Below, piece by piece: positions 51,930 to 55,935 of a stretch of DNA of 64,000 nt. The notes beneath the pieces are model-generated. The model saw only the letters and a list, made by a program, of their open reading frames with translations, made no database searches and was not told where the DNA came from. The DNA is taken from assembly GCF_020531985.1 (NCBI RefSeq), contig NZ_JAJAVQ010000002.1, forward strand, positions 310,001 through 374,000, read 5' to 3'. Made by a program: the position numbers and the translations under genes. This stretch comes from Rheinheimera aquimaris (GTDB taxonomy: Bacteria > Pseudomonadota > Gammaproteobacteria > Enterobacterales > Alteromonadaceae). Every line of letters begins with the position of its first letter. The stretch's first letter is position 1.

Positions 51930-53279
51930 TTACTCGGTTTCATCGCCTTGCTCGGCTACCTGGGCGGCGCTGAGTTCGTGCTTTTTCAGTAATTTATAAA
52001 AGTCAGTGCGGTTGCGGCCGGCCAGTTCAGCGGCGCGGGTAACATTGCCTTCAGTCATTTGTAATACGCGGATCAGGTACTGACGCTCAAACTGATCGCG
52101 CGCTTCTGTCAGTGGTGGCCAGTAGCTGCTGTCTTGCGATAATGCCTGCTCCACCTGAGCTGCGCCTATTACCGGGCTATGGGTTAACGCCACGCATTGC
52201 TCCACCACGTTGACCAGCTGGCGCACATTGCCGGGCCATTTGGCGGTGGCCAGTAGCTGCATGGCATCATCTGAAAAACGCGTTACATCAACCTGATGCC
52301 GTTCTACACTTTGCTGCAGCACATGGCGTGCCAGCAAAGGGATATCTTCGGGTCGCTGCTCAAGGCTTGGCAATTGCAGGTTAACCACATTCAGCCGGTA
52401 GTATAAATCTTCACGGAAGCTGCCGTCCTGCATAGCTTGCTGCAGGTCGCGGTGTGTTGCCGATAGCACCCTGACGTTAATGGGTACCGTTTTGGCGCTG
52501 CCAACCGGGCGTATCTGCCGCTCCTGCAGTGCTCGCAGCAGTTTAACCTGCAGCGCAACCGGCATGTCGCCAATCTCATCCAAAAACAAAGTGCCGCCAT
52601 CGGCTTCCCGGAACAGGCCGCCATGCTCGGTGACTGCGCCGGTAAAGGCGCCTTTGGTATGGCCAAACAGCTCAGATTCCAGCAGATGTTCCGGCAAGGC
52701 GCCGCAGTTTATCGCCACAAAGGCTTTTGATGCACGTGGGCTGGCTTTGTGTATCGCTTTAGCCAGCAGTTCTTTACCTGTACCACTGGCGCCGGTGATC
52801 AACACGCTGACATCGCGCTGCGCTACACGGTAACTTTGCTCCAGGACATCTTCCATCAGGCGCGAGCGGGTAATAATATCTTCGCGCCATTCAGCCTGTT
52901 CCGGCACTGATTGATGCACAGCATTTTGTAAAATATCGCGCAGCTCACTGGTATTCAATGGTTTGGTCAGAAAGCCGAACACGCCGCGCTGGGTAGCAGC
53001 AACGGCTTCCGGGATCGAGCCGTGAGCTGTCATCAGCACCACCGGCAAACCCGGGTAGCGTTTGGCAATTTCATCAAACAGGCTCATACCGTCAAGGCCT
53101 GGCATCCGCAAATCGCTCAGCACGACGTCAATACTGTTTTTGGCCAGTAAAGGCAAAGCTGCCTCGGCGCTGTCCGCACTGATTACCTGATAGCCTTCGC
53201 CTTCCAAACGCAGGGTTAACAGCCGCAGCAGGCTTGGGTCATCGTCAACAAGCAATAAACGGGGCTTAGCGCTGGCCAT
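51930..53279 (-). CDS. glrR: Sigma-54-dependent response regulator GlrR
   Basis: A 449-aa NtrC-family activator. Receiver domain (1-120) with phosphorylation site Asp56 and Lys106. AAA+ domain with Walker A GASGTGKE (163-170), GAFTGA (210-215, the sigma-54 contact loop) and Walker B LFLDEIGD (231-238). C-terminal Fis-type helix-turn-helix (about 405-440, NVTRAAELAGRNRTDFYKLL). The NRTDFYKLL end and the operon with a lipoprotein and GlrK-like kinase identify it as GlrR (YfhA/QseF). It overlaps the lipoprotein gene by 14 bp. Confidence 0.92.
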   Translation of the reverse strand: MASAKPRLLLVDDDPSLLRLLTLRLEGEGYQVISADSAEAALPLLAKNSIDVVLSDLRMPGLDGMSLFDEIAKRYPGLPVVLMTAHGSIPEAVAATQRGVFGFLTKPLNTSELRDILQNAVHQSVPEQAEWREDIITRSRLMEDVLEQSYRVAQRDVSVLITGASGTGKELLAKAIHKASPRASKAFVAINCGALPEHLLESELFGHTKGAFTGAVTEHGGLFREADGGTLFLDEIGDMPVALQVKLLRALQERQIRPVGSAKTVPINVRVLSATHRDLQQAMQDGSFREDLYYRLNVVNLQLPSLEQRPEDIPLLARHVLQQSVERHQVDVTRFSDDAMQLLATAKWPGNVRQLVNVVEQCVALTHSPVIGAAQVEQALSQDSSYWPPLTEARDQFERQYLIRVLQMTEGNVTRAAELAGRNRTDFYKLLKKHELSAAQVAEQGDETE

Positions 53280-53868
53280 TATTATCCTCTTGCACCTTAG
53301 GTTGATTCAGCTGGGCCTCTATCTGGGTCAGCGCATCTATTTTCTTTTGCAATTCGCGGTTGGTTTTTTGCAGCCGTTCTATGTTGTCATGTTGCTGCGC
53401 GTTTAAACGCGTCAGTGCGCTGACTGCGGATTCGGCTTCCAGCAACTTCTGGTTAAACGTCAAATCCCAGCTCAGCAAAGCCGCCAACTGCGGTGGCAGG
53501 CTGGCCAGCTGATCGGCCAGTTGCATCTGGATCCGCAGCCGCGTCAGGTATGGGGTGTCGGGATGCAGTTGCAAAATAGTACGCTTGAGCATCCAGACAT
53601 CGTTCTGTGTGGTATCGCTGTTAAGCAGTTCGCGCTCTTCATTTACCCGGTTTAGCATAGCGGCGCGGTAGTTGACCCAGGCTTGTAACGCATCGGCATC
53701 GTCGCTGATCTTTAGTGCGGGCGCAGCCGGTTCCGGTTGTTCGGCGAAATCGACTAACGGCTCTGTCTGTGGCAACGGCTCTGGCACTGGCGCTATAGGC
53801 TCAGGTGCCGGCGTCATCTGGCAGCCAGCCAGAGTCAGGCTAAAAAGGATGATTAATCCGCTTTTCAT
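53266..53868 (-). CDS. qseG: QseG/YfhG-like lipoprotein
   Basis: A 200-aa lipoprotein (lipobox LAGC, Cys16), with a Pro/Glu-rich segment (about 19-45), a helical middle and a C-terminal coiled coil (RLNAQQHDNIERLQKTNRELQKKIDALTQ). In enterobacteria the gene between glrK and glrR (yfhG/qseG) encodes an outer-membrane lipoprotein that activates the kinase. Sequence similarity is loose, but order, size and lipobox agree. Four-bp overlap with glrK. Confidence 0.8.
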   Translation of the reverse strand: MKSGLIILFSLTLAGCQMTPAPEPIAPVPEPLPQTEPLVDFAEQPEPAAPALKISDDADALQAWVNYRAAMLNRVNEERELLNSDTTQNDVWMLKRTILQLHPDTPYLTRLRIQMQLADQLASLPPQLAALLSWDLTFNQKLLEAESAVSALTRLNAQQHDNIERLQKTNRELQKKIDALTQIEAQLNQPKVQEDNNGQR

Positions 53869-55310
53869 GCTGGTTTGTCCTCTAACAGCGGTAGCCGCAC
53901 CCTAATACAGACGTCGGCATAAATAACATCAACAATGTCGGCATGGCCGCCCAGCAGGCGCGCGCAGTCGGCAACGATAGATAACCCCAGGCCGGAGCCT
54001 TGTACTGCATCAAACCTTGGTGTAGTGCCACGCTGAAAGGGTTCAAATAACTTCTCGCGCAGTGCAGTAGGAATAGGATTACCATTGTTTGCGACATCCA
54101 GAAACAACTGATGTTCCTGCTGGTACAATTTTACCCATACCGGGCTGTTCTGGCTGCCATAGGCCTGAGCATTGTTAATCAGGTTATCCAGTATACGCCG
54201 GAATAGCGTAGCGTCGGTATAAATCGCGCTGAGCTGACAACTCAGGTCGATACTCTGACCGCGTTGTTGTAACGACAGCGCATGGTCGTTAAAGCAATCG
54301 GTCAGCAGTTGTTGCGGCGAATGCCAGTCTGGTTCGGGCTTAGCCTGTTGCAGCAAGCGGTTGTAATCCAGCAGCTGTTCAGTTAATACGCTGAGCCGGT
54401 CGGCGCTGCCATTTAGCAAGCCTACTACCTCCAGCTGCTGAGGGTTTAACGGGCCTACCAGCTGTTCACTGAGTAATGAACACCCTTCACGAATGCTGGA
54501 CAGCGGCGTCTTTAACTCGTGCGATGCGTGGCGCAGTAAAATCAGCCTGAGTGCTTCCAGCTGTTGCAGGCGCGAACTTAACCAGCGCAGCTGTTCACCC
54601 AGTTCAGTCAGTTCACGCGGGCCAGTCATTTTTTCTTCCGGAAACTGATGCTGCTGCCCGATAGCGCGGATCATTCTGTCCAGCTTACGCACCGGTGCCG
54701 TAATGCGGCCAGAAGCCCACAGCACCAACAGCAGGGTCAGCAACACCAGCGCGACCGTTTGCCAGGCCAGTTGTTGTTGGCTCTCAACCACAAAATGCTG
54801 CTGTTGTTGCAGGTTTTTTTCCAGTAGCAACCAGATTTGCTGCGTCAGTTGTTGTTGCTGTAAACGAAACTGCTGCATTACCGGCTCCAGTTCGCTGCTG
54901 CTAAGCGCAGTGAAATTGTCCAGAATGATTTGCAGCTGATACTGCTGTTGCTGGCATAACTGCGGCTGGCCGACATTGTCACACACCTGTTGTAGCAGGG
55001 CCTGATAATTATCCAGATGGGTTTGGGCTACCCGTGCTAACGCTTCGGTTTTTACTACGGCATGCTGGCGTACTGCCCGTTCTATATCGACCACCAGGTT
55101 CTGCATGTTCTCGGCGCGGCGCACACTGGCAATCGAAGATTCAGCTTCTGCGACAGCGTTTTGGCTTACGCCATTAAGTGCCCTGTGGCTTTGCCACATC
55201 AATACCGCCACCGGGATCAGGGCGAGAAAAAAGCTCAATAACACCAGTTGCCGCAAAGAAGCAGTTTGCAAAGAAAAGCGCATAGTCGTTTGTCGTAATC
55301 GCAGGGCCAT
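53865..55310 (-). CDS. glrK: Sensor histidine kinase GlrK
   Basis: A 481-aa membrane kinase: transmembrane helix about 21-39, a Gln-rich periplasmic helical region (40-184), second helix about 185-200, HAMP linker, phosphoacceptor His264 in LRHASHELKTPLSSIREG, and an ATPase domain (N box NLINNAQAYG, G box GSGLGLSIV). Matches GlrK/YfhK/QseE by length, motif and operon. The nearby sigma-54 promoter with a GlrR-type site fits this system. Confidence 0.9.
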   Translation of the reverse strand: MALRLRQTTMRFSLQTASLRQLVLLSFFLALIPVAVLMWQSHRALNGVSQNAVAEAESSIASVRRAENMQNLVVDIERAVRQHAVVKTEALARVAQTHLDNYQALLQQVCDNVGQPQLCQQQQYQLQIILDNFTALSSSELEPVMQQFRLQQQQLTQQIWLLLEKNLQQQQHFVVESQQQLAWQTVALVLLTLLLVLWASGRITAPVRKLDRMIRAIGQQHQFPEEKMTGPRELTELGEQLRWLSSRLQQLEALRLILLRHASHELKTPLSSIREGCSLLSEQLVGPLNPQQLEVVGLLNGSADRLSVLTEQLLDYNRLLQQAKPEPDWHSPQQLLTDCFNDHALSLQQRGQSIDLSCQLSAIYTDATLFRRILDNLINNAQAYGSQNSPVWVKLYQQEHQLFLDVANNGNPIPTALREKLFEPFQRGTTPRFDAVQGSGLGLSIVADCARLLGGHADIVDVIYADVCIRVRLPLLEDKPA

Positions 55311-55332
55311 TAAGCATACCCTATTTTAACGG

Positions 55333-55364
55333 CAAAAAAAAAAGGCCAGTGGGGTTCTGGCCTT
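55333..55364 (-). terminator. Strong terminator after the small membrane protein gene
   Basis: On the minus strand AAGGCCAG / CTGGCCTT (55364-55357 and 55349-55342) is followed by a run of about ten T. It separates the small gene's transcript from glrK, leaving only about 20 bp before the glrK start. Confidence 0.92.
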
Positions 55365-55414
55365 ACAAAAATTCAGCGAAACCGCTGAACTCATGGGATA
55401 GTGGCGCAGGCGGC

Positions 55415-55624
55415 TTAAGCCGCCTCGGCCAGGTAAGATGGCTGGTAAGCCGTTGCAGCAGGTAATGCCGGTGCTGCAACAGGTTGTGTTGGGGTAGCGG
55501 CCATTTGAGCCTGTTCCCAAGCCAACACGCTGTCGTTGTTCAGATTTACACGGCGCAGCATGCTGATCACTACAGCTACATTAGCCAGTAAGAACAACAT
55601 TGTACCCATCAGAAATAAGTCCAT
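55415..55624 (-). CDS. Small membrane protein, sigma-54/GlrR-controlled candidate
   Basis: A 69-aa protein: one N-terminal hydrophobic helix (about 2-22, MDLFLMGTMLFLLANVAVVISM), a short basic/polar stretch (RRVNLNNDS) and an Ala/Pro/Gln-rich tail. A strong GGAGG precedes the ATG, so it is probably translated. No known family comes to mind. It is the only frame in a short transcript that runs from a sigma-54-type promoter (55753-55768) to a strong terminator. It lies directly upstream of glrK on the same strand. Confidence 0.75.
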   Translation of the reverse strand: MDLFLMGTMLFLLANVAVVISMLRRVNLNNDSVLAWEQAQMAATPTQPVAAPALPAATAYQPSYLAEAA

Positions 55625-55680
55625 AACAACCTCCGTTAAATGCAGCCTTACATCAGTGTGCTGCGTTCAGTCAGTTCGAA

Positions 55681-55728
55681 GGAGAATGTGGCAAAGGCAC
55701 TTGGAAACCTGCACTTGCGACATTCTCC
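55681..55728 (-). ncRNA. Leader hairpin of the small transcript
   Basis: GGAGAATGT and ACATTCTCC are perfect 9-bp arms; after one mismatch GCAA/TTGC extends the stem. It would fold in the 5' leader of the predicted transcript, about 15 nt after the predicted start. There is no T-tract. Offered as a leader structure, not as a proven separate RNA. Confidence 0.55.
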
Positions 55729-55752
55729 TGTAACGTCGCTTGCCAGAACTAA

Positions 55753-55768
55753 TACAAGGGTCGTGCCA
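55753..55768 (-). promoter_or_regulatory. Sigma-54 promoter of the small membrane protein gene
   Basis: Minus strand CTGGCACGACCCTTGTA: -24 element TGGCAC (55768-55763), 5-bp spacer, -12 element TTGTA (55757-55753). It matches consensus TGGCACG-N4-TTGCA except T for C at -12. Predicted start near 55742. Confidence 0.78.
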
Positions 55769-55844
55769 GGTTTGGAATTTATTTTTATACTGTTTTAAAT
55801 CAATAGTTTATCGTTGGTGTGCTGGCGGTGGGGGCATGGTGTGT

Positions 55845-55878
55845 AGATTAACTGTCGCAGTTCGGCGACAGTTAATCT
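55845..55878. promoter_or_regulatory. GlrR-type activator site in a 14-bp perfect palindrome
   Basis: Arms AGATTAACTGTCGC and GCGACAGTTAATCT flank a 6-nt centre. Inside is TGTC (55853-55856), exactly 10 bases, GACA (55867-55870), which equals the GlrR consensus known from enterobacterial glmY. The centre lies about 119 bp upstream of the predicted sigma-54 start, a usual enhancer distance. Confidence 0.75.
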
Positions 55879-55917
55879 GGGTGGAATTAGATATTGTTAT
55901 TTATCAACAGTTTACAG

Positions 55918-55935
55918 TGTATGCTTTTGGCGACA
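55918..55935. promoter_or_regulatory. Second, weaker GlrR-type site
   Basis: TGTA-N10-GACA, 7 of 8 conserved bases, centred 65 bp from the first site. Enterobacterial glmY also has several sites. Confidence 0.45.

What the first reader, a model, noticed from the sequence alone, without database searches (positions are those of the whole stretch)
55415..55935. Sigma-54/GlrR-type control of a short transcript in the position of glmY, upstream of glrK
Seen: a 16/17-match sigma-54 promoter (55753-55768, minus), a perfect TGTC-N10-GACA within a 14-bp palindrome about 119 bp upstream of the predicted start, a second 7/8 site, a predicted transcript of about 400 nt ending in a strong terminator, and glrK-qseG-glrR next on the same strand. 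Known: in enterobacteria GlrR activates the sRNA gene glmY, located upstream of glrK, from a sigma-54 promoter through TGTC-N10-GACA sites. Inference: this lineage has a different output there, a structured leader plus a 69-aa membrane protein. It could be an independent target of an ancient GlrK/GlrR circuit, a dual RNA/small protein, or a feedback element of the kinase.
Basis: partly seen in the sequence, partly recalled or inferred. Interest (0 to 1): 0.85.

Follow-up and report, generated by a model that had tools for sequence, protein, structure and literature searches.

The report
Small membrane protein replacing glmY
In Rheinheimera bacteria, the stress-sensing switch that controls a small RNA called GlmY in E. 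coli appears, from sequence evidence, to control a gene for a tiny membrane protein at the same place in the genome, suggesting that one conserved switch has been wired to different outputs.

Summary
In 36 of 36 loci examined with this small gene (30 in the genus, 6 in two related genera), two TGTN12ACA sites lie exactly 65 bp apart. An IHF-like site starts 3 bp after the first, and a -24/-12 element begins 80/81, 91/92, 101/102 or 112-114 bp from the start of the second, in helical-turn steps. GlmY control regions have the same plan with 63-bp spacing. The product differs: a membrane protein under strong purifying selection (pN/pS 0.055-0.097), with no GlmY match. Elsewhere in Gammaproteobacteria the plan often precedes small exported EF-hand proteins. 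A perfect site plus sigma-54 element lies within about 6 kb of glrR in 19 of 45 loci, against 0 of 20 control stretches; 26 of 45 lack it. I read this as a conserved GlrR/IHF/sigma-54 enhancer carrying lineage-specific outputs. Control by GlrR is inferred, not shown. The protein's function (feedback on GlrK, or envelope effector) is open. The 5' leader is a covarying hairpin, but all 7 Arsukibacterium loci lack it, so it is not essential.

The parts
55918..55935 (-). Distal GlrR-type site (UAS1), TGTCGCCAAAAGCATACA
   Evidence: 7/8 to TGTC-N10-GACA, full match to TGTN12ACA; exactly 65 bp start-to-start from UAS2 in 36 of 36 loci; mean pairwise identity 0.87 in 17 Rheinheimera loci
55902..55914 (-). 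IHF-like site TAAACTGTTGATA (YAAN4TTGATW; consensus recalled), 3 bp after UAS1
   Evidence: same offset in 36 of 36 loci; mismatches of 9: none in 14, one in 17, two in 4, three in 1
55853..55870 (-). Proximal GlrR-type site (UAS2), TGTCGCCGAACTGCGACA, in a 14-bp inverted repeat
   Evidence: 8/8; identity 0.83 in 17 Rheinheimera loci
55753..55768 (-). Sigma-54 -24/-12 element TGGCACGACCCTTGTA
   Evidence: 11 of 12 specified bases; an element of 9-11 of 12 in 36 of 36 loci
55680..55729 (-). 5' leader hairpin AGGAGAATGT...ACATTCTCCT of the predicted mRNA
   Evidence: 17 consensus pairs, 6 with changes on both sides, in 23 of 30 genus leaders; arms 0.93 and 0.88 identical against 0.56 for third codon positions, 17 loci; absent in the other 7, all Arsukibacterium
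55415..55624 (-). 69-aa single-pass membrane protein gene
   Evidence: found in 31 of 31 genus genomes and in 2 other genera; pN/pS 0.055-0.097 over codons 1-40; one long helix, residues 2-43, in a model of mean pLDDT 70
55334..55399 (-). Conserved 3' UTR: TCCCATGAG, a TTCAGC/GCTGAA hairpin, and terminator hairpin GGCCAG/CTGGCC with T-run
   Evidence: alignment of 25 of the 30 genus loci; TCCCAT in 26 of 30; identity 0.82 in 17 Rheinheimera loci; weak match to Rfam ncS54, 26 bits against a cut-off of 43
55313..55318 (-). Possible separate -10 element (TATGCT) of glrK, after the terminator (inference)
   Evidence: TATGCT after the terminator in 24 of 30 genus loci, missing in the 6 Alishewanella-type ones; also in g66
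53865..55283 (-). glrK (qseE) sensor kinase; probable start 55283 (ORF opens at 55310)
   Evidence: HisKA and HATPase_c; relatives show the same start region
53266..53868 (-). qseG-like lipoprotein gene between glrK and glrR
   Evidence: position and lipobox; NCBIfam QseG only E = 0.12, below cut-off
51930..53279 (-). glrR (qseF) sigma-54 activator
   Evidence: NCBIfam GlrR NF011695, 695 bits, E 3.2e-209; next best family 416 bits; curated cut-off of 763 not reached

Best explanation
55935-55334 (minus) is a GlrR-controlled transcription unit. Phosphorylated GlrR binds two TGTN12ACA sites 65 bp apart, IHF bends the DNA beside the first site, and the GlrR oligomer activates sigma-54 polymerase at 55768-55753 (inferred from architecture and conservation). 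The transcript of about 410 nt is an mRNA. It has a stable 5' hairpin, a strong Shine-Dalgarno sequence, an ORF for a 69-aa inner-membrane protein (N-out/C-in by the positive-inside rule, with a conserved membrane-proximal LRR-V-[ND]-LNN-x-SV-x-AWEQ motif) and a conserved 3' UTR/terminator. It takes the place that the sRNA gene glmY has in Enterobacteriaceae, under the same enhancer plan, so the circuit is conserved while its product has been exchanged. Most likely the protein acts at the inner membrane in the envelope-stress response that GlrK/QseG senses. My preferred, weakly supported guess is that it modulates GlrK itself.
For: 65-bp pair, IHF-like site and helically phased -24/-12 element in 36 of 36 loci with the gene. 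In the two g69 genomes where the gene lies about 1 and 3 kb from glrK, the whole control region stayed with it. The same plan with 63-bp spacing stands before glmY, where the published model is IHF-assisted QseF binding at three TGTN12ACA sites (PMC6075780, passages). The DNA-binding helix RNRT[DE][FL][YH]KL is common to GlrR of the four glmY-bearing and five small-protein loci aligned. Perfect sites are enriched near glrR class-wide: 47 in 548 kb against 2 in 269 kb of control stretches, and 25 against 2 in the paired genomes. Coding is real: pN/pS 0.097, 0.067 and 0.055 in three clades. No GlmY match here, but the RapZ domain is present.
Against: No expression or binding data. The -12 dinucleotide is GT here (GA in Arsukibacterium) instead of GC. 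Window GlrR scores below the curated GlrR cut-off (695 against 763). The genome has many related regulators (52 matches of all kinds to the PrsR model in G000). Class-wide, 26 of 45 glrR loci show no strict unit, and 7 of 16 dual-site units fetched with flanks have no GlrR orthologue in the stretch. Nothing tests what the protein does: no Pfam or NCBIfam match, and the fold model is only a helix.
Confidence: 0.78

Rival explanations
1. The unit is controlled by another sigma-54 activator, most plausibly PrsR of the PEP-CTERM system, which the genome also has.
For: A PrsR over cut-off is in G000 and in 7 of 10 relatives searched. In one search some dual-site units precede genes that look exopolysaccharide- or PEP-CTERM-related (by eye), and in G181 a dual-site EF-hand unit lies a few kb from a PrsR-like regulator instead of GlrR (L180).
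Against: The published PrsR operator is a different 17-nt motif ending TTTACA (PMC1569441, section 7). The host's PrsR has another DNA-binding helix (TRPTLYALIDKY). No 8/8 TGTC-N10-GACA site lies in the 40, 31 and 32 kb around prsR in three genomes of the genus. The unit stays close to glrK.
Confidence: 0.08
2. The functional product is an RNA: the leader or 3' UTR acts as a GlmY-like or base-pairing sRNA, and the ORF is secondary (dual-function transcript).
For: Leader hairpin arms 0.93/0.88 identical and covarying; 3' UTR block 0.82 identical in Rheinheimera; weak ncS54 similarity; RapZ is present, while no GlmY or GlmZ over cut-off was found in the relatives sampled.
Against: The leader is absent in 7 of 7 Arsukibacterium loci, and the 3' UTR sequence is not shared with g66 or g69, whereas the ORF is kept in them and is under purifying selection in three clades. 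The terminator loop changes between clades.
Confidence: 0.15
3. The small protein is a dedicated feedback regulator of GlrK (as MgrB is for PhoQ, recalled), and the linked EF-hand proteins elsewhere are its functional counterparts.
For: Linkage to glrK/glrR in many lineages; membrane or exported location matches the GlrK/QseG sensing compartment; QseG already activates QseE by direct contact (PMC12691602, passages).
Against: No interaction evidence; in two g69 genomes the gene is 1-3 kb from glrK; several EF-hand units are not near glrR; the E. coli output GlmY is a cytoplasmic RNA; no sequence relation between the small protein and the EF-hand proteins (hhalign probability 0.5%).
Confidence: 0.35
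4. Chance motif matches next to a weakly conserved ORF.
For: Single motifs are at chance frequency in the window.
Against: Combination in 1 of 100 simulated windows; 36 of 36 conservation with fixed geometry.
Confidence: 0.01

Closest known systems
glmY control region and locus of Enterobacteriaceae (QseF/GlrR, IHF, sigma-54)
   Same: Position upstream of glrK(-qseG-)glrR; TGTN12ACA sites; IHF-like site between two of them; sigma-54 promoter (PMC6075780 passages)
   Different: Product is a membrane protein mRNA, not GlmY; two sites 65 bp apart instead of three (two of them 63 bp apart); upstream gene is add, not purL (purL recognised by me from the ORF tail)
Small exported two-EF-hand protein genes, many linked to glrK/glrR, in other Gammaproteobacteria (found here; no name found in the papers searched)
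   Same: Two TGTC-N10-GACA-type sites about 65-67 bp apart, sigma-54 element, small envelope-directed product, often near glrK/glrR
   Different: Product is an exported EF-hand protein, unrelated in sequence to the 69-aa protein; some are not near glrR
PEP-CTERM PrsK/PrsR sigma-54 regulon
   Same: Related activator family; upstream site plus sigma-54 motif before exported products (PMC1569441, section 7)
   Different: Different operator and DNA-binding helix
MgrB-type small membrane regulators of sensor kinases (recalled)
   Same: Small single-pass protein expressed by the system it might regulate
   Different: No sequence relation tested; interaction unknown

Membership tests
GlrR/QseF-activated sigma-54 unit | TGTN12ACA sites upstream of a -24/-12 promoter, IHF site | tested here: met
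   36 of 36 loci by sequence; binding itself not tested
GlrR/QseF-activated sigma-54 unit | GlrR orthologue with conserved DNA-binding helix | tested here: met
   RNRTDFYKLL; best NCBIfam hit GlrR by 279 bits, though under its curated cut-off
GlrR/QseF-activated sigma-54 unit | Transcription depends on glrR and rpoN | not testable with these tools
   needs mutants
GlmY sRNA (RF00128) | Match to the covariance model above cut-off | tested here: not met
   none in window or G000; 9 of 158 order genomes match, all in families f10, f18, f26
GlmY sRNA (RF00128) | Location upstream of glrK | tested here: met
Two-EF-hand exported protein | Two EF-hand loops and signal peptide | tested here: not met
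   no Pfam match; hhalign probability 0.5%
Small protein-coding gene | Purifying selection on the reading frame | tested here: met
   pN/pS 0.055-0.097
PrsR regulon | PrsR operator motif ending TTTACA | not tested
   that motif was not searched for here; its published description differs from these sites

The most novel reading that the evidence does not exclude
The GlrK/GlrR locus is a regulatory socket: one conserved enhancer-promoter (two GlrR sites a nearly fixed distance apart, IHF, sigma-54) has been kept near the sensor genes across much of Gammaproteobacteria while its payload was swapped. In many lineages it is a small exported EF-hand protein (perhaps the ancestral output), in Enterobacteriaceae and kin the sRNA GlmY, in the Rheinheimera group a small inner-membrane protein. 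GlmY would then be a late replacement, not the original output.
Probability: 0.5. Interest if true: 0.72.

Novelty: new variant of a known kind. Interest (0 to 1): 0.58.

Why it matters
GlrK/GlrR (QseE/QseF) is known through GlmY and rpoE in enterobacteria, yet the kinase-lipoprotein-regulator cluster is reported as widespread in Pseudomonadota (PMC12691602, section 5), and the GlmY model matched only 9 of 158 genomes of this order. A conserved sigma-54 output that changes from sRNA to EF-hand protein to membrane protein gives a concrete handle on what the system does outside enterobacteria. It shows how an sRNA could have entered an older protein-output circuit, and gives a ready set of promoters to test.

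Tried and rejected
and the alignment were made before minus-strand loci were turned round and are mixed-strand; only the oriented re-run is used. The first EF-hand motif expression was wrong and counted 0; one search corrected it. The strict dual-site script flagged 8 of 45 class loci; the single perfect site plus sigma-54 criterion (19 of 45) is a second, looser definition, applied alike to the controls. GlmY and GlmZ homology was rejected (the best GlmZ hit was 25.7 bits against a cut-off of 60). Descent of the 69-aa protein from an EF-hand protein was suggested by 'RRVDLN' next to 'HRVDLNKDG' and rejected. PHROGs gave only a weak hit for 4 of 18 members (phrog_950, best E 0.0003, no function). 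Base-pairing of the 3' UTR with targets such as glmS was not tested. rpoE as a second GlrR target was not tested. AlphaFold gave only a helix; no fold search was run. Papers: search listings; passages of PMC6075780, PMC3162934, PMC8745638 and PMC9850573; passages and one section each of PMC12691602 and PMC1569441; the key 2011 glmY paper (PMC3045617) is not held. No paper holding both GlrR and EF-hand was found; the 20 rows listed for QseF/calcium/EF-hand contain none with QseF.

Full report
WHAT IS THERE. Read 5' to 3' on that strand: site 1 TGTCGCCAAAAGCATACA (55935-55918); an IHF-like TAAACTGTTGATA (55914-55902); site 2 TGTCGCCGAACTGCGACA (55870-55853); -24/-12 TGGCACGACCCTTGTA (55768-55753); a leader with a strong hairpin; GGAGG and ATG; a 69-codon ORF (55624-55415); a hairpin and a terminator ending near 55334; then glrK, a qseG-like lipoprotein gene and glrR. 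The adenosine deaminase gene lies upstream. Taken singly the motifs are at chance frequency in the window. The combined unit occurs once, and in 1 of 100 simulated windows.

HOST AND CONSERVATION. The best-matching named records are Rheinheimera, Arsukibacterium and Alishewanella, which the whole-genome tool treats as one genus (inferred from matching contig lengths). The small protein is found in 31 of 31 genomes of that genus and in 0 of 29 others in the first survey of 60. A profile search of 118 family genomes adds clear hits (E 9.5e-8 or better) in two further genera, g66 (3 genomes) and g69 (3 genomes); all weaker hits there (E 0.03 or worse) were dropped. In all 36 loci examined (30 of the 31 genus loci plus these 6) the two TGTN12ACA sites are exactly 65 bp apart; one locus, L015, has 11 of 12 half-site bases, the others 12. 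An IHF-like site begins 3 bp after site 1 (mismatches of 9: none in 14 loci, one in 17, two in 4, three in 1). The distance from the start of site 2 to the -24/-12 element is 80/81 (3 loci), 91/92 (13), 101/102 (15) or 112-114 (5), in steps of about one helical turn. These loci are related by descent, so the counts are not independent events. This is the geometry expected of a looping enhancer-binding protein. In g69 genomes G098 and G162 the gene is about 3 and 1 kb from glrK and kept its whole control region.

COMPARISON WITH glmY. Their glmY control regions show two sites 63 bp apart, and in f18 and f10 a third site 32-33 bp further upstream. Four f18 regions read have an IHF-like ATTGAT sequence between the 63-bp pair. 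Of the four GlmY-bearing stretches fetched, the strict script flags the pair in three (L186, L187, L188) and misses L189, where one site begins CGTC. In E. coli, IHF-assisted QseF binds three sites of consensus TGTN12ACA (PMC6075780, passages). The DNA-binding helix of window GlrR (NRTDFYKLLKKH) is close to that of f18 GlrR (NRTEFYKLLSRH), with 68-71% identity over the HTH. The GlmY model matches 9 of 158 order genomes, all in f10, f18 and f26, and none of the host-family genomes in that sample (with stricter filters that can lose weak matches). No GlmZ match over cut-off appears in 21 genomes, while the RapZ domain is found in 7 of 7 (G000 and 6 relatives). So the locus and enhancer plan are shared, and the product is not.

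THE PRODUCT. Codons 1-40 show pN/pS of 0.097 (17 Rheinheimera loci, 136 pairs), 0.067 (7 Arsukibacterium, 21 pairs) and 0.055 (6 Alishewanella-type, 14 pairs), so the protein is real. Invariant residues in 21 sequences include D2, F4, L5, N15, L23, R25, L28, N30, S32, V33 and A35-W36-E37. The model is one helix, residues 2-43, with a disordered tail. The arginines after the hydrophobic stretch suggest N-out/C-in (inference). No Pfam or NCBIfam family matches.

THE RNA. In 23 leaders (predicted starts) a 17-pair hairpin is conserved, with 6 pairs changed on both sides. Its arms (0.93 and 0.88 identity in 17 Rheinheimera loci) are more conserved than third codon positions (0.56). Yet in 7 of 7 Arsukibacterium loci the predicted 5' UTR is only about 20 nt and lacks it, so it is not essential to the unit. 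It may stabilise the mRNA or tune translation. The 3' UTR block is conserved (0.82 in the 17 Rheinheimera loci; 25 of 30 genus loci aligned) but not in g66 or g69. It resembles Rfam ncS54 weakly (26 bits, cut-off 43). An RNA function is possible but unproven.

BEYOND THE FAMILY. The same plan was searched in 116 family genomes (36 matches, 13 for the reversed control pattern) and 369 class genomes (29 matches, 5 for the control), so part of these matches is chance. From the first search I examined 10 loci, chosen by eye as likely real, and 8 of them have a small exported EF-hand protein as first ORF; from the second I examined 27 loci, and 5 have one. Pfam confirmed EF-hands in the three that I submitted. 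Of 16 such stretches fetched with flanks (L166-L181), 9 hold a GlrR orthologue (L166, L168-L173, L179, L181) and 7 do not; where both are present the unit lies upstream of glrK (for example L171, L173) or just after glrR (for example L168, L169). As an unbiased check I took the 45 non-self GlrR-like places (44 genomes) from 229 class genomes with about 6 kb on each side, less where contigs ended. A small two-EF-hand ORF is present in 14 of 45, and 12 of these have a site of at least 7/8 and a sigma-54 element of at least 9/12 somewhere in the 450 bp upstream (L228 and L230 do not). In 20 control stretches from 20 of the same genomes it is 0 of 20, against 8 of 20 in the paired glrR loci. Perfect 8/8 sites: 47 in 548 kb against 2 in 269 kb. 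A perfect site with a sigma-54 element of at least 10/12 is in 19 of 45 loci, 11 of the 20 paired loci and 0 of 20 controls. So 26 of 45 loci have no such unit, and only 8 of the 19 have an EF-hand first ORF by that script. The association is clear but not universal.

ATTRIBUTION. The genome also carries PrsR. Its published operator ends TTTACA (PMC1569441, section 7), its DNA-binding helix differs, and no perfect TGTC-N10-GACA site lies around prsR in three genomes of the genus. Against this, one dual-site EF-hand unit elsewhere (L180) lies near a PrsR-like regulator. GlrR is therefore the better candidate, but the genome has many related regulators and no binding data exist.

VERDICT. A new variant of a known kind: the GlrR/IHF/sigma-54 enhancer known from glmY, here driving a lineage-specific small membrane protein. 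Shown: sequence, conservation, geometry, coding. Inferred: GlrR binding, sigma-54 dependence, topology. Guessed: feedback on GlrK or an envelope effector. The boldest reading, a conserved socket with swapped payloads and EF-hand proteins as the older output, is not excluded; no tree of payloads was built, and I give it about even odds.

Noticed in passing
L174 (G133:C2:53000-60000), module near 1096: A second dual-site sigma-54 unit in a g66 genome drives a different small exported protein of 63 aa (MKKEWIAIAVIVVANLSLANTVFCSLDD...), without a Pfam match; a possible second GlrR target.
   Followed up: partly
L139-L143, L162: Some class-wide dual-site units precede genes that look exopolysaccharide- or exosortase-related (judged by eye), although the PrsR operator is described as different.
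   Followed up: no
L167 (G700:C11), L138: A dual-site unit before a gene for a small exported protein rich in HKDGKMGD-like repeats; no GlrK or GlrR match within the fetched 9 kb.
   Followed up: no
window 55335-55401, minus: The 3' UTR resembles Burkholderia sRNA ncS54 (E 0.0012, below its cut-off); the terminator loop is C-rich and in Arsukibacterium contains CCCTCCTTA (TCCTCCTTA in L026), complementary to a strong Shine-Dalgarno sequence.
   Followed up: partly
window 55283-55310: The glrK ORF as listed (start 55310) is probably over-long; the conserved start is 55283.
   Followed up: partly
G000:C1:576877-578190: The host genome encodes a PEP-CTERM-type response regulator (PrsR, 687 bits).
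   Followed up: partly
window 53266-53868: The protein between glrK and glrR has a lipobox and the position of QseG but barely matches the QseG model (E 0.12), so QseG diverges fast.
   Followed up: no
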